A stretch of DNA of 46,678 bases from a virus, in the IMG/VR virus record IMGVR_UViG_3300042540_001044, positions 1-46,678 of that record; one strand, given 5' to 3'. Positions 3,187 through 25,279 of this stretch are shown here, in pieces. The notes beneath the pieces were generated by a model. That model was not told the DNA's origin. It saw only the letters and a list, made by a program, of their open reading frames with translations, and searched no databases. Position 1 is the stretch's first letter; each line of letters starts with the position of its first letter. The translations under genes were made by a program, and so were the position numbers.

Positions 3187-3436
3187 CAGCGAAACTGAGC
3201 AGGCACGAGCAGAACTTGTGATGCTGCTAGCAGACATGCTGGCAGATCACGAGAGCGATGCTCGCGACCGAGCGAACCAGATCGCAGACACACTCAAAGC
3301 CCTGTACGGTATCGACGCAACAACCGTCAAGCTCAACGTGTACAACGGGCTGACACACCAGAGGGATCTGGCGATCGCCATCCCAGAATCATCATGGAAC
3401 AATCTGCTTTCCATGATCCGAAAAGCTTTCTCTTGA
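3179..3436 (+). CDS. Hypothetical 85-aa helical protein
   Basis: Starts at GTG 3179, overlapping the ligase end by 8 bases. AAGGAGG at 3167-3173 is a good ribosome site. The first half is a charged helix (ARAELVMLLADMLADHESDARDRANQIADTL) and the rest is probably a short alpha/beta unit. No family recognised. Its last codons overlap the -35 element of the promoter that drives the RavA/ViaA-like pair. Confidence 0.68.
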   Translation: MPDSETEQARAELVMLLADMLADHESDARDRANQIADTLKALYGIDATTVKLNVYNGLTHQRDLAIAIPESSWNNLLSMIRKAFS

Positions 3437-3461
3437 CACACGACATGAACACCGCAAAGAT
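3433..3461 (+). promoter_or_regulatory. Sigma70-like promoter before the RavA/ViaA-like pair
   Basis: TTGACA at 3433-3438, a 17-base spacer, then AAAGAT at 3456-3461. The -35 is a perfect consensus. The -10 is weak but keeps the two most important bases (A2 and T6). It overlaps the end of the upstream gene and sits about 40 bases before the ATG at 3502, leaving a short leader with AAAGGAG as ribosome site. Confidence 0.5.
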
Positions 3462-3501
3462 GACCGAAGAACGCAACGAAGTCCTCTCAAAGGAGACCAC
3501 C

Positions 3502-4677
3502 ATGAACGCAACCAACACCCTTTCCGCCAAGTTCCAGAACCTCGAAGCCGACCTGCGCACCGTCCTGCTGGAGCGCAACGAGGAGACCCACACCGCAATG
3601 CTCGCCCTCATCGGACGGCAGCACCACTTCACGCTGGGTCAGCCCGGCATCGGCAAGTCGCTCCTGGTCGACCAGCTCGTCAAGCGCATCGCCGATGTCA
3701 ACTACTTCGACATCCTCCTCATGAAGCACTCGCAGCCCGACGAGGTCTTCGGTGGCCCCGATGTCAAGAAGCTGTCCGAGACGGGCGCCTTCGAGCGTGT
3801 CATCACCGGCATGCTTCCCGAGGCCGACATCGCGATGCTCGATGAGATCTTCAAGGCCAACGCCGCCATCCTGAACGCCATGCTGCGTGCGATGAACGAG
3901 CGTCGGTTCAGCATGGGAGCGGGACGGGTCATCGACATCCCGCTGCACACCATCTTCGCAGCTTCCAACGAGCTGGCTGACACCGAGGAACTGGCCGCGA
4001 TGTGGGACCGTCTCCACTTCCGCCACTTCTCCAACCCGCTGCAGGAGACGAGCAACTTCGTCAAGATGATCAGCAGCGACATCCCCGACGACCCCGAGCA
4101 TTTCCTCACGATGCTCGACATCAAGGCTGCACGACGGGCAGCGAACGAGGTGGAGATCCCCGACGAGGTGCTGGAAGCAACGGTCCTGCTCAAGGATCAG
4201 CTGCTGCAGGAGAGCATCGAGGTGTCCGATCGTCGCTGGCGTGAGGCCATGAAGGCGATCCGTTCCGAGGCGTTCTACAACGGCCATTCGGTCGCTGAGA
4301 TCCACGACATGCGTCCCCTGATGCACTTCCTGTGGAGCAACCCGGACCACATCAAGACGGTGCGCCGTCTCGTGCTGGAGCTGGCGAACCCACTGGAGCG
4401 TGAGGCAGCAGAGCTGCTGGACGACCTGACCGAGAGCTACGCTCAGTACGAGAACCAGTTCAAGGACGCCGAGAACAAGCAGCAGAAGGCGGCGCACGGC
4501 GTCGAGATGTTCCGCAAGCTCAACAAGGCGAAGGACTCCTACAAGGACCTGCGCAAGCGCCAGGGCAAGACCGGACGCCAGTCCGATGTCATGGACGAGC
4601 TGGGTGCGAAGATCCAGTCGAGTGGCAAGCAGCTTCTCAAGGCGCTCGGTCACGACGACGACGACAACGAGGTCTGA
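3502..4677 (+). CDS. RavA/MoxR-type AAA+ ATPase
   Basis: A 391-aa protein. I place the start at ATG 3502 because AAAGGAG lies 8 bases upstream and the family begins near this point; the frame is open further upstream but that part is not conserved. Walker A is GQPGIGKS near residue 45. SQPDEVFG, then a Walker B of IAMLDEIFKA and LNAMLRAMNERRF, give the MoxR/RavA signature, and AASNELAD is the sensor region. The C-terminal third is helical and rich in charged residues. RavA works as a hexamer with the VWA protein ViaA, and the next gene encodes just such a partner. CobS-like ATPases are a more distant alternative. Confidence 0.85.
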   Translation: MNATNTLSAKFQNLEADLRTVLLERNEETHTAMLALIGRQHHFTLGQPGIGKSLLVDQLVKRIADVNYFDILLMKHSQPDEVFGGPDVKKLSETGAFERVITGMLPEADIAMLDEIFKANAAILNAMLRAMNERRFSMGAGRVIDIPLHTIFAASNELADTEELAAMWDRLHFRHFSNPLQETSNFVKMISSDIPDDPEHFLTMLDIKAARRAANEVEIPDEVLEATVLLKDQLLQESIEVSDRRWREAMKAIRSEAFYNGHSVAEIHDMRPLMHFLWSNPDHIKTVRRLVLELANPLEREAAELLDDLTESYAQYENQFKDAENKQQKAAHGVEMFRKLNKAKDSYKDLRKRQGKTGRQSDVMDELGAKIQSSGKQLLKALGHDDDDNEV

Positions 4678-4693
4678 GAACAAGATGTGTGAG

Positions 4694-4723
4694 ACACTGG
4701 CGGGGAGCGATCCCCGCCAGTGT
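4694..4723 (+). terminator. Perfect 13-bp hairpin between the ATPase and VWA genes
   Basis: ACACTGGCGGGGA (4694-4706), loop GCGA, then the exact reverse complement at 4711-4723. The stem is strong, but only TATCTC follows, not a U-run. It may be an attenuating terminator or an mRNA-stabilising hairpin that sets the ratio of ATPase to VWA partner. The ribosome site GGAGG of the next gene lies 11 bases beyond it. Confidence 0.65.
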
Positions 4724-4743
4724 TATCTCAACGGAGGTACAAG

Positions 4744-6393
4744 ATGAAGCGCAACAGGAACAGCAACGACGATTTCCTCAAGGACTTCTTCGCAGGCAAG
4801 GCCCGCAAGGGCAGCGACCGTTCAGTCAACAGCAAGTACACGATCGTTCACGACAAGTGGGACGGTGACGACTACACACGCATCCACGCCGAGGTCAAGG
4901 ACTTCGGTGTCGCAGAGAAGGCACTGAAGCAGGTTGCTGGTGACCCCGCGACCGCAGCGATGGCCGATGAGTTCTTCTCGCTGGTCAAGGCGGTGCCGGT
5001 CCTCAAGGACCCCAAGACGATCCGCCCGTCGCACATGGTGAACGCTGCTGTGATGGCCGAGCAGATGAAGCTCGCCGAGTACGAGTCGCTGCGCTCCACG
5101 GCAGTTGGTGACCCGATCGGCACGGCGCTCGCAGCCATCGCCATGGAACCCCAGCTCGAAATCCTCTACGACAAGCTCAAGGAAGAGCAGAAGCTCGCCG
5201 ACGAGATGGAACAGAAGATGCAGGAGCACGAGGGTCTGCAGGAAGAGCAGGAATCCGTCGAAGAGATGATGGAGAAGGCTCAGCAGGAGGGCGACGAGCA
5301 GAAGGCTCAGAACTACCAGGAGCAGGCAGAGCTGATCCAGGCAGCGATGGACAAGCTGCAGGAAGAGATCGAGGGTGCGGGAGAGCAGCTCGATGAGCAG
5401 CTCGACGGCAAGGCCCAGCAGATCCGGCAGGGGCTCAACAAGGCGCTGGCCGAAGCCAACAAGGATGCCGACCAGCAATCAGCGTTGAGCACAGCGTGGG
5501 GTCTCGATCGGGGCACCCTGCAGCGCATGGATGCGAAGAAGCGCATCGAGCTGTCGAAGAAGATGAAGAACGAGAAGTTCCAGCGGCTCGCTGATCTGAT
5601 CGGCCCGATGATGCGCATGGCGTGGGCTGCACAGAACCGCAAGGTCAACTACACGCCCGAGGAGATCTACGACGTGGGAATCGGCAACGATCTCCCGCAC
5701 ATGCTCCCCAGCGAGTACCTGTACCTGAACCATCCGGTCCTGAAGATGGACTGGATGCGGCGCTACACCAACCACGCCCTCCTCCAGTACGAGCTTCGCG
5801 GTTCGGACAAGGTGGCGAAGGGCGGCATCATCTTCTGTGAGGATGGCTCGGGTTCGATGAGCGGCAGCAACGAGGTGTGGGCCAAGGCTGTCGGCCTCGC
5901 TCTACTCCACGTCGCGAAGATGCAGAAGCGTCCGTTCACCGGCATCCACTTCGGTGGCCCCGGCGAAATCAAGACGTTCGAGTTCACCACGACCGACAAG
6001 GAGTTCAAGTCGCACACCGAGTACGGTCACACGCACGAGGAGTTGACGGGTGTCGAGTCGGTCATCGACTTCGCCGAGATCTTCTTCGGTGGCGGCACGG
6101 ACTTCGTGACGCCGCTGTCCCGGGCGCTCGACCAGCTGCGCAAGGAGCACGAGAAGTACGGTGCTGTCAAGGGCGACATCGTGTTCGTCACTGACGGTGC
6201 GTGCGGCGTGCCTGACAAGTGGCTGGAAGAGTTCAAGGCTGAGCAGGCTCGCTTGGGGTTCCGGGTCTTCGGAATCGTGATTGGTGGACACTCCTCGTCG
6301 GAGCCGCTGAACACGATCGCTGACGGCAAGGTGGTGGAGATCAAGGATCTGATGTCGGGCGGCGACATCGGACACATCTTCGAGGCCATCTGA
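4744..6393 (+). CDS. VWA-domain protein, ViaA-like partner of the AAA+ ATPase
   Basis: A 549-aa protein. ATG 4744 is chosen for ACGGAGGT just upstream. Residues 1-135 are mixed helical. About 145-240 is a long coiled coil very rich in Glu and Gln (EEQKLADEMEQKMQEHEG and following). The C-terminal 180 residues are a von Willebrand factor A domain with the MIDAS motif DGSGSMS near residue 370, the Thr/Asp loop FFGGGTDF and the second Asp in FVTDGACG. ViaA-type proteins place the VWA domain at the C-terminus and act with RavA as a metal-dependent chaperone pair. The phage role is unknown; such pairs may remodel host or phage complexes. Confidence 0.85.
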   Translation: MKRNRNSNDDFLKDFFAGKARKGSDRSVNSKYTIVHDKWDGDDYTRIHAEVKDFGVAEKALKQVAGDPATAAMADEFFSLVKAVPVLKDPKTIRPSHMVNAAVMAEQMKLAEYESLRSTAVGDPIGTALAAIAMEPQLEILYDKLKEEQKLADEMEQKMQEHEGLQEEQESVEEMMEKAQQEGDEQKAQNYQEQAELIQAAMDKLQEEIEGAGEQLDEQLDGKAQQIRQGLNKALAEANKDADQQSALSTAWGLDRGTLQRMDAKKRIELSKKMKNEKFQRLADLIGPMMRMAWAAQNRKVNYTPEEIYDVGIGNDLPHMLPSEYLYLNHPVLKMDWMRRYTNHALLQYELRGSDKVAKGGIIFCEDGSGSMSGSNEVWAKAVGLALLHVAKMQKRPFTGIHFGGPGEIKTFEFTTTDKEFKSHTEYGHTHEELTGVESVIDFAEIFFGGGTDFVTPLSRALDQLRKEHEKYGAVKGDIVFVTDGACGVPDKWLEEFKAEQARLGFRVFGIVIGGHSSSEPLNTIADGKVVEIKDLMSGGDIGHIFEAI

Positions 6394-12965: not shown

Positions 12966-13041
12966 TCTGGGGTAGCTCAATCGGCAGAGCAACGCACTGT
13001 TAATGCGCAGGTTGGAGGTTCAAGTCCTCCCCCCAGAGCCA
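12966..13041 (+). tRNA. tRNA-Asn (GTT), CCA encoded
   Basis: Acceptor TCTGGGG pairs with CCCCAGA at 13031-13037. D-arm GCTC/GAGC, anticodon loop CTGTTAA with anticodon GTT, T-arm GGAGG TTCAAGT CCTCC, discriminator G and encoded CCA (13039-13041). All arms are canonical except an A-C pair at the top of the anticodon stem. Confidence 0.93.
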
Positions 13042-13042
13042 C

Positions 13043-13127
13043 GGTACGGTTGAACAGGTGGTGAGTTCCGCAGACTGTAAATCTGTCGCCTTCGGCTTTG
13101 TAGGTTCGATTCCTACCCGTACCACCA
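13043..13127 (+). tRNA. tRNA-Tyr (GTA), CCA encoded
   Basis: Acceptor GGTACGG pairs with CCGTACC. Anticodon loop CTGTAAA gives GTA. The long variable arm (CGCCTTCGGC region) is normal for bacterial tRNA-Tyr. T-arm GTAGG TTCGATT CCTAC, discriminator A, CCA at 13125-13127. It begins one base after tRNA-Asn. The last A of CCA is also the A of the ATG of the next gene. Confidence 0.93.
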
Positions 13128-14301: not shown

Positions 14302-14330
14302 TTGACATGACTCAAACGGCTTGCTATTCT
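14302..14330 (+). promoter_or_regulatory. Strong sigma70-like promoter
   Basis: TTGACA at 14302-14307, a 17-base spacer, and TATTCT at 14325-14330. Transcription would begin about 14337 and cover the small membrane gene at 14355, the 14474 gene and then the structured non-coding region up to 15.1 kb. Confidence 0.65.
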
Positions 14331-14477: not shown

Positions 14478-14650
14478 AGAAGTTCTGGGCTGAGATCGAA
14501 GTCAACGACGACGAGATCCACGAGACCGAAGACCCCATGCTGTTCGATGTGGATGCCGGTGCGTTGCCGACGCTCACGAACGGCGCAACGAAGATCAGAT
14601 TCAAGGTACTGCGGTTCGTTGAAGGCGAACCGCGAGAGGAGAGCAAGTGA
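14474..14650 (+). CDS. Hypothetical 58-aa acidic protein
   Basis: GTG 14474 overlaps the previous stop. The protein is acidic (EIEVNDDEIHETEDPM) and looks like a short beta sheet (TKIRFKVLRFVEGE). Family unknown. It is the last gene before about 500 bases without a clear protein gene. Confidence 0.6.
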   Translation: MKKFWAEIEVNDDEIHETEDPMLFDVDAGALPTLTNGATKIRFKVLRFVEGEPREESK

Positions 14651-14691
14651 CCACAAGATACCAGATCCATCTTCCCTGACGCCTGAGTTCT

Positions 14692-14735
14692 GGGCACGTC
14701 GCAGCCTCTCCTCCCCACCTCCCTGCGGCGTGCCC
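14692..14735 (+). ncRNA. Hairpin with C-rich, anti-Shine-Dalgarno-like loop
   Basis: GGGCACGTCGCAG (14692-14704) pairs with CTGCGGCGTGCCC (14723-14735) through 13 pairs including one U-G. The 18-base loop is pyrimidine-rich with repeated CTCC/CCTCC units, the complement of GGAGG. ATCTTCTCCTT follows, so it could be a terminator for the 14302 promoter, or an sRNA-like element that pairs with ribosome sites. Confidence 0.5.
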
Positions 14736-14759
14736 ATCTTCTCCTTCGGAATGAGTCCC

Positions 14760-14974
14760 GAGGGCGACTAAAAAGCTGAAGCTTATCAAGAAGCTCAGCC
14801 CATCGCGTTACACAGTGCAGGTTCGAATCCTGCCCTCCCAACACTGATTCTCCGACCAAGCTCCTTAGGGCAGTCGGGTGTTCAGCAAACCAACCGACAT
14901 TCGGGGGGTCAGTGTTGGGAGGTAGCCGATGAAAGCGTGTCGATCCAACTCAGCACTGCTCACCGACAAGATCG
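14760..14974 (+). ncRNA. Structured RNA with tRNA T-arm and permuted acceptor-like stem
   Basis: Base pairing is seen at several places. A bulged 9-bp hairpin with a 6-base loop spans about 14774-14799. GCAGG TTCGAAT CCTGC at 14817-14833 is an ideal tRNA T-arm. The next 14 bases (14834-14847) are exactly complementary to 14909-14922, and TA follows, as after a tRNA 5' acceptor strand. Between them lie CCGAC/GTCGG and CCGA/TCGG stems. A 6-bp GAGGGC/GCCCTC pairing is an alternative. This order (T-arm, 3' acceptor, spacer, 5' acceptor) is that of permuted tRNA or tmRNA genes, but no anticodon or tag reading frame is found. Confidence 0.45.
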
Positions 14975-14991
14975 TAACGTCAGCAAATGGC

Positions 14992-15065
14992 CTCCCGGGT
15001 TGTTATTCCTTCCTGTCCTGGGAGCTGATGTCTGCGCCAAAGATGTTTGATGGTGTCGTCTTTGG
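14992..15065 (+). ncRNA. Two further hairpins before the tRNA-like element
   Basis: CTCCCGGG (14992-14999) pairs with CCTGGGAG (15017-15024) with one wobble. CCAAAGA (15037-15043) pairs with TCTTTGG (15059-15065). The stretch 14651-15078 has no convincing protein gene. An open frame runs through part of it, but this frame also crosses the tRNA-like element, which argues against coding. Confidence 0.4.
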
Positions 15066-15078
15066 CCCGGCGAAGGCC

Positions 15079-15150
15079 AGCGGTGTAGCTCAAATGGAAG
15101 AGCGCCTCCTAATCTTGGGGGAGACTGGGGTTCGATTCCCTGCGCCGCAC
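15079..15150 (+). tRNA. tRNA-like element with non-functional anticodon loop
   Basis: A 72-nt cloverleaf: acceptor GCGGTG/CGCCGC with an A-A mismatch at the first pair, TA at positions 8-9, D-arm GCTC/GAGC with GG in the loop, anticodon stem CCTCC/GGGGG, 4-nt variable loop, T-arm TGGGG TTCGATT CCCTG. The anticodon loop is TAATCTT, with A instead of the invariant U33 and a pyrimidine at 37, so decoding is doubtful. No CCA is encoded. Two bases after the discriminator an ATG begins. It could be a decayed tRNA or a processing signal. Confidence 0.6.
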
Positions 15151-20270: not shown

Positions 20271-20732
20271 CTACTTGTCGGACAGCTGCCACGCGAGATA
20301 AATGCACTGCTGCCGCACATACTCCAGGTCCCGATAGGTGTCGGTTTCAAGACGAGAGGGCAGCACGTTGATCACAGTGGGAGTCAAGTCCCCATAGTGG
20401 GCGCAGTCGAACCCCAAGAACCAATGCTCGTGGCTACCCTCTTCGTGGCTAGAGTAGGTCAACCCGCCATGAATAGTAACATCCACATCGTCGTACTCCA
20501 GCTGCCAGTACTGGCTACTGGAGTCAACTCCAACATACCCGCAGAGAGCGCCAACAGGGTTACGCCTGATACGACACGGGTAGCCGGTGGCTTCGTCTCG
20601 CCACTCGAAGTAGTCAGGCTCATGATCCCACGGACCCTCAGGAACAAGGTCTTGCTTCCACCACGGGTTTCTGACTATTACGAAGGAGCCGAACTGTGGG
20701 ACGCCGATGTAATGCCAGTTGCGCTGAAGCAT
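20271..20732 (-). CDS. Hypothetical 153-aa protein with aromatic beta-rich fold
   Basis: ATG 20732 lies inside the dnaE 3' end (55-base overlap). Contains RNPWWKQDLVPEGPW, a central GYVGVDSSSQYWQLEYDD and SHEHWFLGFDCAHYGD. This style of Trp/His-rich sequence is common in actinophage proteins of unknown function. A possible metal site is formed by His and Cys residues near 100-112. Confidence 0.66.
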   Translation of the reverse strand: MLQRNWHYIGVPQFGSFVIVRNPWWKQDLVPEGPWDHEPDYFEWRDEATGYPCRIRRNPVGALCGYVGVDSSSQYWQLEYDDVDVTIHGGLTYSSHEEGSHEHWFLGFDCAHYGDLTPTVINVLPSRLETDTYRDLEYVRQQCIYLAWQLSDK

Positions 20733-23242
20733 AGCTTGCGTAGTTCCTCGATCAAGGCATCGCTGCCGTCCACTGCGTAGTCGTTCGGTAGGGCCATCAC
20801 TGATGAGCCTCCGAGGTGCAGTCTAACAGGGAGCGAGCCTCGATGCGAGAGAAGAATCCCTTTGAGCTTTGAGACTTCGGCTGTGTCTTTGATGAGCCCA
20901 TCGGGGAGACGGATCTTAAACTCTTCTGTCTCATCGATTGCGACACTAACATTCATTTCAGGGCACAGCTCCAAGTCAATCAAAATGTAGTCGCGCTCAC
21001 TATGACTACTCGTAGCAGGACGCAACCTCAACCGGGCAACCGTATCCTCCTCCAAAGAACCACGCACCCTCTCATCCCACACCTTCGGGAACGCAATCAC
21101 GTTCACCGAAATCTCATGGTTCGAGATCAAGAAGTGAGCCATCTCCGCACCACCACGAGTGGTCCGCACATTGAAATCAGAGACCAAACCAGCAACCCAC
21201 TTCGACTGGCCATCCTCCAAGTCAGCAAGATCAGTCAGATCCACCTCTGAATTCTCAAACACCCACGACTCCAACCCGTCCATAGGATGCCCAGACACAT
21301 ACACGCCCATGACCTTGCGCTCCAAGTTCAGACGCTGACGCTCCGAATACTCCACCTTCGGAACATTGAAGAACCTGTCCTCGTCATCCTCGAACAGGCT
21401 CACCAACCCCTTCTCCCGCTGCTTCTTCGCCTTGCGAGCCGACGCGAGGATCTCCTCCACCACCCCGATCAAACCCAGACGAGAGTAACCGAACTCGTCC
21501 ATTGCGCCAGCCTCAACCAGCGGAACAAACACCCTCTTGTTCATAGCGTCACGAATCATCATTCGCAGCACAAAATCGTACATGTCCTTGAAGGGCCCGC
21601 CCTGGTTGCGCTCGTCGACCACCTGATCACCGAAGCCCTCACCCACCTGAGCGATCGACGACAAACCCACCCGGATCTCATCAGCGCTCGCAGTGAACGC
21701 CACCTCAGACTTGTTCATCGAAGGCAGACGAACAGGAATACCCATCCGTCGAGCCTCAGCCAAGAAGATCGACGCCTTCTCCAAAGCAACACCCCTACAC
21801 AGGGCCGCCATGTAGAACGTCGGATAGTTCGCCTTCAGATACGCCGTCTGATACGCCGTCATCGCGTACCCATACGCATGCGATTTGTTGAAGCCATAAT
21901 CTGCGAAGTCGGCGATCATCCCAAACAGCTTCTCGGAGAACTCGTTGCTGTAACCGTTCGCCACACAACCCTTGATGAAGCCGTCCTTCTCGGCTGCCAT
22001 CTTCTCCTTTATCTTCTTCCCCATAGCCTTACGGAGGTTGTCCGCCTCTGCGAGCGAGTACCCGGCGAACTTCTGCGCGATCTGCATCACCTGTTCCTGA
22101 TAGATGCACAGGCCCTGAGTGTCAGCCAGGATCTCTCGTGCATCATCGTGGAAGTATTCTACAGGCTTGCGTAGATTCTTGCGGTCGGCGTAGTCGTTGT
22201 GCATGTTCGCCGCCATCGGTCCCGGCCGGTACAGCGCGACAAGCGCAGCGATATGGTCGAACGTCTCCGGGTTGAGACGCACCACCAGCTCACGCATCGC
22301 CTTCGACTCCAACTGGAACACACCGATCGTCTCGCCATGACGCAACAGCTCGAACGTCTTCGGGTCATCCAGCGGGATCGAATCGATATCGACCACACCC
22401 AAACCCTGGCCCTCGATCAGACGCAGACACTCAGTGATCACATCCAGGTTCCGCAACCCCAAGAAGTCCATCTTGAGCAGACCCAGAGCCTCCACCCCAT
22501 GCATGTCATACTGGGTGGCAACAGGAGCGTCCTTGCCCTTCTTCTGCACAGGGACAATGTCCATGAGCGGCACATCAGAGATCACCACAGCCGCAGCGTG
22601 GATAGAGTCGGCGCGCTTCAACCCCTCCAAACTCTTCGCTGCATCAATGATCTGCTTAGCCTCGGGGTCATTCGCATAGATGTCCCTGAACTTCTGAGAC
22701 TGAGCGAACTGTGCCTCATACCCCTCGGTACGCTCCAGGCAGGCAGCCAGAGGAGCGTCACGCCCCATCAGAGCAGGCGGCAACGTCTTCGAGATCTTGT
22801 CGCCGACGATGAACGGATGGCCGAGCACCCTTGCAGCGTCACGCACCGCGGCACGAGCCTTGATCGTGAAGAACGTGACGATCTGAGACACATGGTCCTC
22901 ACCGAACCGCTGCGACGTGTAAGCAATCATTGCTTCACGCCCGCTCGCCTCCATATCCAAATCGATATCCGCCATTGACATCCCCTTGCCAAGCTGCAGG
23001 CTCAACCCAATGGGATAGCTGGTCGGCTTCTCATTGGTGATGCCAATTACGTAGGCAACCGAGGATTGCTGCGGGTTAGCTACGGTAACGCCTCTGTCAA
23101 ATACATCCAGATACACGCGCTCGATACCCAGGTGCTCGATGGCCTTCAGTTCATCCTTTAGCCATCCCTTATCGACTTCGTCCCGACGAGGGGAGAACAT
23201 TACGAGCCCGGCGATTGTCGAGCACCTCTTGGTATCGTTCAT
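20678..23242 (-). CDS. dnaE: DNA polymerase III alpha (DnaE), C-terminal part
   Basis: 854 aa if begun at ATG 23242 (ATAGGAA upstream); ATG 23200 is an alternative. The first 90 residues are poorly conserved. From SMADIDLDM (about 22980) the match is full: the catalytic Asp pair, then GREAMIAY, IVTFFTIKARAAVRDAARVL, and KMDFLGLRNLDVI with the third catalytic Asp. Fingers and a C-terminal OB-like region follow (VKLEY..GHPMDGLESW style). If the sequence from 22969 is joined to the upstream part ending at 24034, the active site reads SMPDIDLD and the total length is about 1170 aa, normal for DnaE. It is therefore either spliced or a two-piece polymerase. Confidence 0.85.
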   Translation of the reverse strand: MNDTKRCSTIAGLVMFSPRRDEVDKGWLKDELKAIEHLGIERVYLDVFDRGVTVANPQQSSVAYVIGITNEKPTSYPIGLSLQLGKGMSMADIDLDMEASGREAMIAYTSQRFGEDHVSQIVTFFTIKARAAVRDAARVLGHPFIVGDKISKTLPPALMGRDAPLAACLERTEGYEAQFAQSQKFRDIYANDPEAKQIIDAAKSLEGLKRADSIHAAAVVISDVPLMDIVPVQKKGKDAPVATQYDMHGVEALGLLKMDFLGLRNLDVITECLRLIEGQGLGVVDIDSIPLDDPKTFELLRHGETIGVFQLESKAMRELVVRLNPETFDHIAALVALYRPGPMAANMHNDYADRKNLRKPVEYFHDDAREILADTQGLCIYQEQVMQIAQKFAGYSLAEADNLRKAMGKKIKEKMAAEKDGFIKGCVANGYSNEFSEKLFGMIADFADYGFNKSHAYGYAMTAYQTAYLKANYPTFYMAALCRGVALEKASIFLAEARRMGIPVRLPSMNKSEVAFTASADEIRVGLSSIAQVGEGFGDQVVDERNQGGPFKDMYDFVLRMMIRDAMNKRVFVPLVEAGAMDEFGYSRLGLIGVVEEILASARKAKKQREKGLVSLFEDDEDRFFNVPKVEYSERQRLNLERKVMGVYVSGHPMDGLESWVFENSEVDLTDLADLEDGQSKWVAGLVSDFNVRTTRGGAEMAHFLISNHEISVNVIAFPKVWDERVRGSLEEDTVARLRLRPATSSHSERDYILIDLELCPEMNVSVAIDETEEFKIRLPDGLIKDTAEVSKLKGILLSHRGSLPVRLHLGGSSVMALPNDYAVDGSDALIEELRKLCFSATGITSASHSSAPS

Positions 23243-23972
23243 GTTTCCTATCCAGGTATCGCGTGGCTGAATCATACAACCAGATGATGTTATCGGCGTG
23301 AGACTCCAGAGAGAAGACATTGCCCGTCGGGTAGATGCCTCCAGCGCGGGGGAGGTTGATGTTCATCCACTCCAAGAGCGCCTTCGGTCCAGTAATCTTG
23401 AGCCGGTAGCCATCAGGAACAGCCGACTTGGCAATCGACCCATCTCCGTCAACGAAGCCACGGATGAAGCTCCTAATGAACTCTGGCTCACTGATCGCAG
23501 GCGGCGACAAGGAGAATGTCTTCCTCTCTGTGCAGCCCAAGTTGATCAAGTCATCCACCAGAAGATCAGAGGTGATCTGGAGACGCGCCACGGGACAAAC
23601 CCCATAGGTGGTCTGCTGATCGAAGCAGCCGATCTTGTAGGTCGCTTGTAGATCATCCCTGAGCTTCTCTAAGTGGTGCATGTCCTTCTGGTTGAGGTCA
23701 ACCTTCAGGACAGACTGCCCATTGAACTTGACGATAGCCCCATCAGCATACAGGAACCCTAACCAGTAAGCCTTTTCTGGTGTATCGAGCACCGAAAAAT
23801 AGGCATCATCCAAGAAGTACTTGCGCGAGTTGGTCTTGTTCGATCTTCGCCGTGTGCCGCTCTTCTTTAGGATGTAGTAGACCCTGTCGGTGCCAAGGCC
23901 AAGCTCTCGACCCACCTTAGCGGCCGACAATCCACTCTGATACAAGCTGACCACCTGTTCGATCGTATCCAT
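23169..23972 (-). CDS. LAGLIDADG homing endonuclease inside dnaE
   Basis: 267 aa, ATG 23972 with AGGGAG eight bases upstream. An N-terminal helix-turn-helix (IEQVVSLYQSGLSAAKVGREL, read in two halves) is followed by two LAGLIDADG helices: YWLGFLYADGAI near residue 70 and SFIRGFVDGDGSI near residue 190. The acidic residues needed for cutting are present. The gene lies exactly between the two parts of dnaE, at the coding position of the catalytic Asp motif. Its last codons overlap the start of the dnaE C-terminal frame. Confidence 0.9.
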   Translation of the reverse strand: MDTIEQVVSLYQSGLSAAKVGRELGLGTDRVYYILKKSGTRRRSNKTNSRKYFLDDAYFSVLDTPEKAYWLGFLYADGAIVKFNGQSVLKVDLNQKDMHHLEKLRDDLQATYKIGCFDQQTTYGVCPVARLQITSDLLVDDLINLGCTERKTFSLSPPAISEPEFIRSFIRGFVDGDGSIAKSAVPDGYRLKITGPKALLEWMNINLPRAGGIYPTGNVFSLESHADNIIWLYDSATRYLDRKHERYQEVLDNRRARNVLPSSGRSR

Positions 23973-25279
23973 AGAACAACTCCCTTGTGTTGCTATGGAT
24001 ATCGTCAAACGAAATGTCAAAATCAACCTGATCAGGCATCGAGATGCGAGACGGGTTCAGGAACCGTTCGAACAGCAGGTCGTACTTGATCGGGTCCACG
24101 TCAGTGATCCCCAGGCAGTACGAGACAGCGCAACCAGCAGCCGAACCACGTCCGGCTCCGGTACGGATACCGACGGACTTGGCGTGGCTCACGATGTCCC
24201 ACATGATCAAGAAGTACGAACTGAAGCCCATGTCAATGATCGTTCGCAGCTCGAATGCGAGCCTTGAAACAACCTCGTCAGGCATGTCCGGCCACCGACG
24301 GTCCGCACCCTTAAACACCAGATCGGTCAAGAACGCATCCACATCCCCATCGAACCAGTCGGGCACCGGGAACACCGGCAAGTGAGGCTTGTCGAAATCC
24401 AGCTTCACGTTCGCACGCTCAGCGATCAACAACGTGTTGTCACACGAAGAAGGCACCTCGCTGAACAGCGAACGCATCTCCTCGGCGGTCTTCAAGTAGT
24501 GCTGGTCAGACTCGAACTTGAACCGTTCAGTGTCCGACATGAGCGACTTCGTCTGCGAACACAGCAGAATGTCATGCCCGAACGCGTCCTCTTGATGCAC
24601 ATAGTGGCTGTCGTTCGTAGCCAGCAGCGGGGCCTGGAGCTTCGCTGCCACATCAAGCAGCGCACTCATCGTGTTTCTCTGCGCGCTGATCCCATGATTC
24701 TGGATCTCGACAAAGAAGTTGTCCTTGCCAAAGATGTCCTGCAGACGTGCAGCAATCTTCAAAGCCTCAGCAGGCGACTCGTTCAACAGGGCCTGGAGCA
24801 CCTGACCGCCAAGGCAACCGCTCGTAGCGATCACACCTTCGCTGTGCTCCTCCAACAGCTCCCAATCGAGACGCGGCTTGTAGTAGTACCCTTCAAGGTA
24901 GGCACGGGACGACAGCTTGACGAGGTTCTTGTAGCCCTCGTTGTTCTCTGCCAGCAACGTCAAATGGTAGTTGACCTTGTGGCCCTCCTCGGTGGTGCCA
25001 CCAGAGTCGTCCTCACGGGAACGCCGCGTCGGTCGCTCTGTGCGATGCTCCTTCGCCATGTACGCCTCGAACCCGATGACCGGGTTGACATCATGGGCTA
25101 GGCAAGCGAGATAGAAGTCGACCACCCCGCTCATCGTCCCGTGGTCGGTGATACCGAGAGCTTTCTGACCGTCAGCTACGGCAGCTTCCACGAAGGGTTC
25201 GATCTTCGCTGCGCCATCAAGGATGCTGTGCTCTGTGTGGCAGTTAACAATGAAGATGAGTAAAGCTACTCTTCTTCAT
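23917..25279 (-). CDS. dnaE: DNA polymerase III alpha (DnaE), N-terminal PHP part; start unclear
   Basis: From CHTEHSILDGAAKI at about 25242 the frame is a clear PHP domain (TDHGTMSGVVDFY, IGFEAYM, HYV) followed by palm motifs GAGRGSAAG, YCLGITDVDP and FERFLNPSRISMPD. After SMPD (24034) it reads on into non-DnaE sequence until a stop at 23917. No ATG, GTG or TTG lies in this frame before the first PHP motif. An ATG at 25279 starts MKKSSFTHLHC and stops at TAA 25246, one base out of frame; a +1 shift at TGT-T-AAC would join it to the PHP frame. GTG 25191 is the first normal start but would remove a metal-site His. Confidence 0.8.

What the first reader, a model, noticed from the sequence alone, without database searches (positions are those of the whole stretch)
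14760..14974. Permuted tRNA-like or other structured RNA with 14-bp perfect long-range stem
A tRNA T-arm (GCAGG TTCGAAT CCTGC) is followed by 14 bases that pair exactly with 14909-14922, after which comes TA. Order: T-arm, 3' acceptor, spacer, 5' acceptor. That is the gene order of permuted tRNAs and two-piece tmRNAs. No anticodon or tag is seen. The T-arm and acceptor strand could also be a copy of a host tRNA 3' end used for integration.
Basis: partly seen in the sequence, partly recalled or inferred. Interest (0 to 1): 0.65.

Follow-up and report, generated by a model that had tools for sequence, protein, structure and literature searches.

The report
Permuted tRNA-mimic RNA in a phage
A phage of unknown host carries, in a non-coding gap near its tRNA genes, an RNA that copies two parts of a tRNA in swapped order, as bacterial Y RNAs do, but with a much longer stem and almost no D-arm, so it is probably a divergent tRNA mimic and not a working tRNA.

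Summary
In detail: a T-arm (14817-14833) abuts a 14-bp perfect helix (14834-14847/14909-14922) followed by TA. With G-U pairs the helix is 22 bp; 3000 shuffles reached at most 14. No reading frame has coding signal there.

It is unlikely to be a tRNA, a permuted tRNA or a two-piece tmRNA: no anticodon or tag is seen, the tmRNA identity pair G3-U70 is absent, and the Rfam permuted-tmRNA model finds nothing in the element. T-arm plus acceptor (24 nt) is identical to bacterial and phage tRNA-Gln, but here the 3' part precedes the 5' part. That is the order of bacterial Y RNAs (YrlA): T-arm, capped acceptor, UA, D-arm. A model built from 17 such RNAs picks this element as the window's best hit (28 bits, full length); tandem-tRNA junctions score almost as high, so the score alone does not prove membership.

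It fails strict YrlA membership: D-arm reduced to GC/GC without GG, no Ro-binding motif in the element, no Ro-like gene in this 46.7-kb fragment. No homologue was found, so its own pairing has no covariation support.

Best reading: a divergent Y-RNA-like tRNA mimic (about 0.5). In passing: un-annotated Y-like RNAs lie beside Ro-like genes in several phages.

The parts
14817..14833 (+). T-arm, 5 bp, loop TTCGAAT
   Evidence: Rfam tRNA model positions 44-63 fit it and Rfam YrlA model positions 31-47
14834..14840 (+). 3' acceptor strand CCTCCCA; with the T-arm identical to tRNA-Gln(TTG)
   Evidence: 24-mer found in tRNA-Gln genes of bacterial contigs L107-L110; 21-mer in phage tRNA-Gln of L101-L103
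14841..14855 (+). 5' strand of the 15-bp extension of the acceptor helix (three G-U pairs)
14856..14900 (+). apical part with two predicted small hairpins (14860-14871, 14873-14898)
   Evidence: minimum-energy fold
14901..14915 (+). 3' strand of the acceptor extension
14916..14922 (+). 5' acceptor strand TGGGAGG; TGGGAGGTAGC equals the 5' end of a phage tRNA-Gln (L101)
14923..14936 (+). TA linker (positions 8-9) and vestigial D-arm GC-CGATGAAA-GC (2 bp, no GG in loop)
   Evidence: alignment to model R2; no D-arm by rule
14801..14811 (+). 5' strand of predicted basal helix (10 bp, one bulged C) with 14922-14931
   Evidence: probability about 0.9 or more in all contexts; shuffle p = 0.017; no comparative support; excludes the vestigial D-arm
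14775..14799 (+). predicted hairpin GCTGAAGCTTATCAAGAAGCTCAGC, possible 5' part of the RNA
14691..14736 (+). predicted 14-bp hairpin with C-rich loop upstream in the same non-coding gap; may be separate
   Evidence: fold of 14651-15079
15080..15150 (+). downstream tRNA-like gene with abnormal anticodon loop (TAATCTT, no U33)

Best explanation
It is a gene for a small structured RNA (about 135 nt, 14801-14936, perhaps with the hairpin at 14775-14799) that mimics the T-arm and acceptor half of a tRNA in circularly permuted order: T-arm, 3' acceptor, capped long arm, 5' acceptor, UA. It works like, and probably derives from, the Y-RNA-like (YrlA) tRNA mimics carried by tRNA-rich phages. Shown: the order, the 22-bp helix, the tRNA-Gln identity of the T-arm/acceptor, the lack of coding signal. 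Inferred: because the acceptor is closed by its apical part it has no free CCA end and cannot be aminoacylated; the T-arm stacked on the acceptor would be a bait or docking site for a tRNA-binding protein (in known Y RNAs the tRNA-like domain binds PNPase and is modified by TruB and DusA), and the basal and long arms would hold a partner or protect the RNA from nucleases. Transcription, processing and partner are unknown.
For: Rfam YrlA consensus has the same order with the T-arm at model positions 31-47 of 114, then capped acceptor, UA, D-arm, and the window T-arm aligns to exactly 31-47. Seventeen T-arm-first RNAs were collected from phages and one planctomycete contig, with two-sided changes in T-arm, acceptor and D-arm pairs (members were chosen by pairing, so this is partly by construction). 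The model built from them gives the window element as the best hit of the whole 46.7 kb, full length, 28.1 bits, E 6.5e-7; conversely the model of the window element finds as its best hit elsewhere a T-arm-first RNA of phage contig G041. L106 (planctomycete contig) has the same 24-nt T-arm/acceptor in permuted order with a D-arm. No coding signal at 14650-14980 in any frame; tRNA genes lie at 12966-13127 and a promoter-like site at 14302-14330.
Against: D-arm reduced to two pairs without GG, so the usual T-loop/D-loop elbow cannot form. No Ro-binding motif GNCGAAN0-1G in the element (one copy 138 nt downstream). No TROVE or DUF2828 protein in the fragment. Model score only 2.7 bits above a tandem-tRNA junction in the same window. 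No homologue in IMG/VR, phage or plasmid collections, so no covariation for this element itself. No expression data.
Confidence: 0.5

Rival explanations
1. Relic: a decayed Y RNA, or the 3' part of one tRNA-Gln copy followed by the 5' part of a tandem copy after a deletion, with no present function.
For: Both halves match tRNA-Gln; tandem tRNA-Gln genes exist in phage contig L101; D-arm nearly gone; neighbouring tRNA at 15080 is also abnormal.
Against: A simple tandem relic would pair over 7 bp, not 22; all three departures from perfect pairing are G-U, which RNA selection would favour; no random decay of the helix.
Confidence: 0.2
2. Cis-acting mRNA element: the helix hides the ribosome site GGGAGG (14917-14922) of the ATG at 14929, or halts transcription or decay, with the T-arm as docking site for a tRNA-binding protein.
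For: GGGAGG lies 6 nt before ATG 14929, which opens a 245-codon frame, and is wholly paired.
Against: No coding signal at 14929-15040 in that frame; the frame runs through the tRNA at 15080 and another small gene; not terminator-like by scan.
Confidence: 0.15
3. Permuted tRNA or two-piece tmRNA precursor, cut and re-paired into a working tRNA or tmRNA.
For: Gene order T-arm, acceptor 3', spacer, acceptor 5'; very weak beta_tmRNA match 14817-14924, 8.9 bits, E 1.5.
Against: No D-arm, anticodon or tag; G3-C70; permuted-tmRNA model RF04321 has no match in the element; the 15-bp extension beyond the acceptor would mask the RNase P and tRNase Z sites (inference).
Confidence: 0.05
4. Phage attachment site copying a host tRNA-Gln 3' end.
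For: 24-nt exact identity to tRNA-Gln 3' parts in several bacteria.
Against: No tyrosine integrase in the fragment (record may be incomplete); the match stops at the acceptor, with A73 then CAC in place of the G73 (and often CCA) seen in the tRNA-Gln genes; does not explain the helix.
Confidence: 0.05

Closest known systems
Bacterial Y RNA, YrlA (Rfam RF02553)
   Same: Order T-arm, capped acceptor helix, UA; 7-bp acceptor start directly after the T-arm; found in tRNA-rich phages
   Different: D-arm vestigial without GG; acceptor helix 22 bp with 45-nt apical part instead of 7-10 bp with a short cap in most; no Ro motif in the element, no Ro-like gene in the fragment; Rfam score only 10.7 bits (gathering 69)
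Circularly permuted tRNA genes (red algae, some archaea; from memory)
   Same: 3' part precedes 5' part
   Different: No anticodon arm or D-arm; acceptor extended and capped
Two-piece (permuted) tmRNA (RF04321, RF01849, RF01850)
   Same: T-arm and acceptor 3' precede acceptor 5'; reduced D-arm
   Different: No G3-U70, tag or significant model match
tRNA-Gln(TTG)
   Same: T-arm and acceptor 3' strand identical over 24 nt; TGGGAGGTAGC of its 5' end
   Different: Order swapped; A73 instead of G73; no anticodon

Membership tests
YrlA (bacterial Y RNA) | T-arm first, followed at once by a capped acceptor helix and UA | tested here: met
YrlA (bacterial Y RNA) | D-arm with GG in the loop | tested here: not met
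   GC-CGATGAAA-GC, 2 bp, no GG; all 17 comparison RNAs have GG, by the search rule
YrlA (bacterial Y RNA) | Basal stem with Ro-binding motif GNCGAAN0-1G (motif from memory) | tested here: not met
   basal stem predicted, motif absent from the element; one copy at 15069
YrlA (bacterial Y RNA) | Score at or above the Rfam gathering threshold | tested here: not met
   10.7 of 69 bits; but the phage candidates taken as comparison also score only 38-45
YrlA (bacterial Y RNA) | Ro60/Rsr (TROVE) gene nearby | tested here: inconclusive
   none in the 46.7-kb fragment; record may be incomplete
YrlA (bacterial Y RNA) | Binds Rsr and PNPase | not testable with these tools
   needs biochemistry
Permuted tRNA | D-arm and anticodon arm completing a cloverleaf | tested here: not met
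   no TTTGA-type (Gln) anticodon loop by motif search; fold
Two-piece tmRNA | G3-U70 alanine identity, tag and model match | tested here: not met
   G3-C70 by sequence; RF04321 no match in the element; beta_tmRNA 8.9 of 84 bits
tRNA-derived att site | Integrase in the phage | tested here: inconclusive
   no PF00589 in the fragment

The most novel reading that the evidence does not exclude
A functional, previously undescribed phage RNA type: a permuted tRNA-Gln mimic without D-arm, whose acceptor is a 22-bp capped rod, able to dock on T-arm/acceptor-reading host proteins (RNase P, TruB, EF-Tu-like or PNPase) without being charged or cut.
Probability: 0.25. Interest if true: 0.6.

Novelty: new variant of a known kind. 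Interest (0 to 1): 0.42.

Why it matters
If real, it shows that the permuted tRNA mimic of bacterial Y RNAs can lose its D-arm and grow a long capped stem, which separates what the T-arm/acceptor part does from what the elbow does. It also draws attention to a set of un-annotated phage Y-like RNAs beside Ro-like genes, whose role in infection can be tested.

Tried and rejected
Close relatives by single-protein search with RecA and DNA polymerase: none useful. A RecA profile gave 80 contigs, none with a T-arm followed by a perfect arm of 9 bp or more. Exact 20-22-mers of the element in IMG/VR: none. Ro60 idea for the 557-aa vWA protein 4720-6393: no TROVE match, low-confidence model with a long coiled coil, next to an AAA ATPase; read as a MoxR-vWA pair as described for jumbo phages (PMC7824862). 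YrlA hits over tandem tRNA arrays (L092-L100) were rejected as junction artefacts, except two free-standing elements in G041. L105, which lacked a predicted tRNA, looks like a tRNA-Leu split by an intron. An alternative basal pairing CGTTAC/GTAACG (14806-14811/14974-14979) has probability near 0. NC_004687 and AY129337 (mycobacteriophage Bxz1) are not held.

Full report
Observation. The T-arm at 14817-14833 and the 14-base arm 14834-14847, exactly complementary to 14909-14922 and followed by TA, are there. The helix goes on through 14855/14901 with three G-U pairs and no mismatch, 22 bp in all. Shuffles of the 250 bases after the T-arm gave at most 10 Watson-Crick or 14 G-U-tolerant pairs in 3000 trials, and whole-window shuffles gave no inverted repeat of 14 bp. 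The region folds with z = -5.7, and T-arm and long helix are stable in seven sequence contexts. A codon-usage score trained on nine window ORFs with family matches is negative in all six frames over about 14650-14980, so the segment is non-coding.

What the halves are. ARAGORN and Rfam at gathering thresholds report no gene at the element. The 24-mer of T-arm plus acceptor occurs in five bacterial contigs: four in normal tRNA-Gln(TTG) genes and one, in a planctomycete contig (L106), in permuted order. The 21-mer core occurs in phage tRNA-Gln genes and two other tRNAs. TGGGAGGTAGC, the second half, equals the 5' end of the tRNA-Gln of L101. So the element looks like tRNA-Gln material with the 3' part placed before the 5' part.

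Which known RNA has that order. The Rfam YrlA consensus runs: basal strand, T-arm, capped acceptor helix, UA, D-arm, basal strand. The T-arm of the window aligns to the YrlA T-arm positions 31-47, but nothing else scores (10.7 bits). YrlA-like RNAs were then found in phage contigs reached through RecA: L089, L090 and L091, below the gathering score, free of predicted tRNAs; the contig of L090 also encodes a TROVE protein. A rule-based scan (T-arm, 7-bp acceptor, T after it) over the held sequences found 13 hits free of predicted tRNAs: 9 with a D-arm by rule, the window element, and chance hits. BLAST from two of them led to un-annotated copies in Streptomyces, Klebsiella, Pseudoalteromonas, Vibrio and Rhodobacter phages.

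A model of the class. Seventeen of these RNAs were aligned. Pairs in T-arm, acceptor and D-arm show many two-sided changes, above every shuffle and every slid version; since members were selected by pairing, this is partly built in. The covariance model R2 gives the window element as the best hit in the window, full length, 28.1 bits, E 6.5e-7, with a 70-nt insertion in the cap and a D-arm reduced to GC/GC. Tandem-tRNA junctions reach 25 bits in the same window and up to about 52 in tRNA arrays, so the score alone does not prove membership; what sets the element apart is that it stands alone and has the 22-bp helix. The reverse search with a model of the window element found as its best outside hit a T-arm-first RNA in phage contig G041 (22 bits, E 0.002).

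Where it departs. No D-arm with GG, a 75-nt stretch between the 7-nt acceptor strands, no Ro motif in the element, and no TROVE, DUF2828 or tyrosine integrase gene in the 46.7-kb record. The energy model prefers a basal helix 14801-14811/14922-14931 that uses up the D-arm residues (shuffle p = 0.017 for that helix). The element therefore cannot be filed as YrlA, although it has the same topology.

Permuted tRNA and tmRNA. No Gln-type anticodon loop by motif search, G3-C70, no permuted-tmRNA match in the element. The method can see such genes: it found a permuted tmRNA in Rhodobacter phage RcXuper (108 bits).

Mechanism. Published work summarised in PMC8394870 states that in YrlA the tRNA-like domain binds PNPase and is modified by DusA and TruB, while the basal stem binds Rsr. 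By analogy, and not shown here, the window RNA would offer a T-arm/acceptor bait with a closed end. The long rod would resist exonucleases and tRNA end-processing. Rivals are a relic and a cis element; both would be separated from it by one RNA-seq experiment.

Limits. No homologue of this exact element was found; the phage has no close relative in the searched collections; the record is a virus contig that may be incomplete; the host is unknown.

Noticed in passing
L177 1140-1567, L178 1297-2566, L179, L180 2506-2879, L181 2493-2570, L182 2502-2699, L149 7206-7436 (-); also L183 2495-2568: T-arm-first, YrlA-like RNAs, mostly un-annotated and often in pairs, within about 2 kb of a Ro-like gene (TROVE in L177, L178 and L149; L179 by its annotation) or of a DUF2828+DUF7788 protein (L180, L181, L182). 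The repeated neighbourhood suggests that DUF2828/DUF7788 proteins are Ro-like partners of Y RNAs; L183 has the RNA but no such match next door.
   Followed up: partly
L116 8802-8877 and 10124-10200 (phage contig G041): Two permuted tRNA-like RNAs set within a dense tRNA array, with a 5-bp pairing where the anticodon stem would be and no TROVE gene found in the contig.
   Followed up: partly
L106 854-928 and 1033-1126: Two adjacent T-arm-first tRNA-like RNAs in a planctomycete contig, one with the same T-arm and acceptor 24-mer as the window element.
   Followed up: partly
L182 2514-2699 (Vibrio phage BUCT194): A T-arm-first RNA whose 128-nt cap contains a normal-order tRNA-like RNA: nested tRNA mimics.
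   Followed up: no
window 15080-15150: tRNA-like gene with anticodon loop TAATCTT: no U33 and an A34 anticodon (ATC); possibly an enlarged 9-nt loop or a degenerate tRNA.
   Followed up: no
window 20678-25191 (-): DNA polymerase III alpha gene split into 25191-23917 and 23320-20678 with an ORF carrying a LAGLIDADG motif (24026-23169) between, in a different frame: intron or homing-endonuclease insertion in the polymerase gene.
   Followed up: partly
window 3394-6393 (+): AAA ATPase followed by a vWA protein with coiled coil, resembling the MoxR-vWA chaperone pairs described for jumbo phages.
   Followed up: partly
window 14691-14736 (+): 14-bp hairpin with loop CCTCTCCTCCCCACCTCC, rich in anti-Shine-Dalgarno-like sequence, in the same non-coding gap.
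   Followed up: no
L183 2030-2446: Rhodobacter phage RcXuper carries a permuted (two-piece) tmRNA gene, Rfam 106-108 bits, not listed in its annotation.
   Followed up: no
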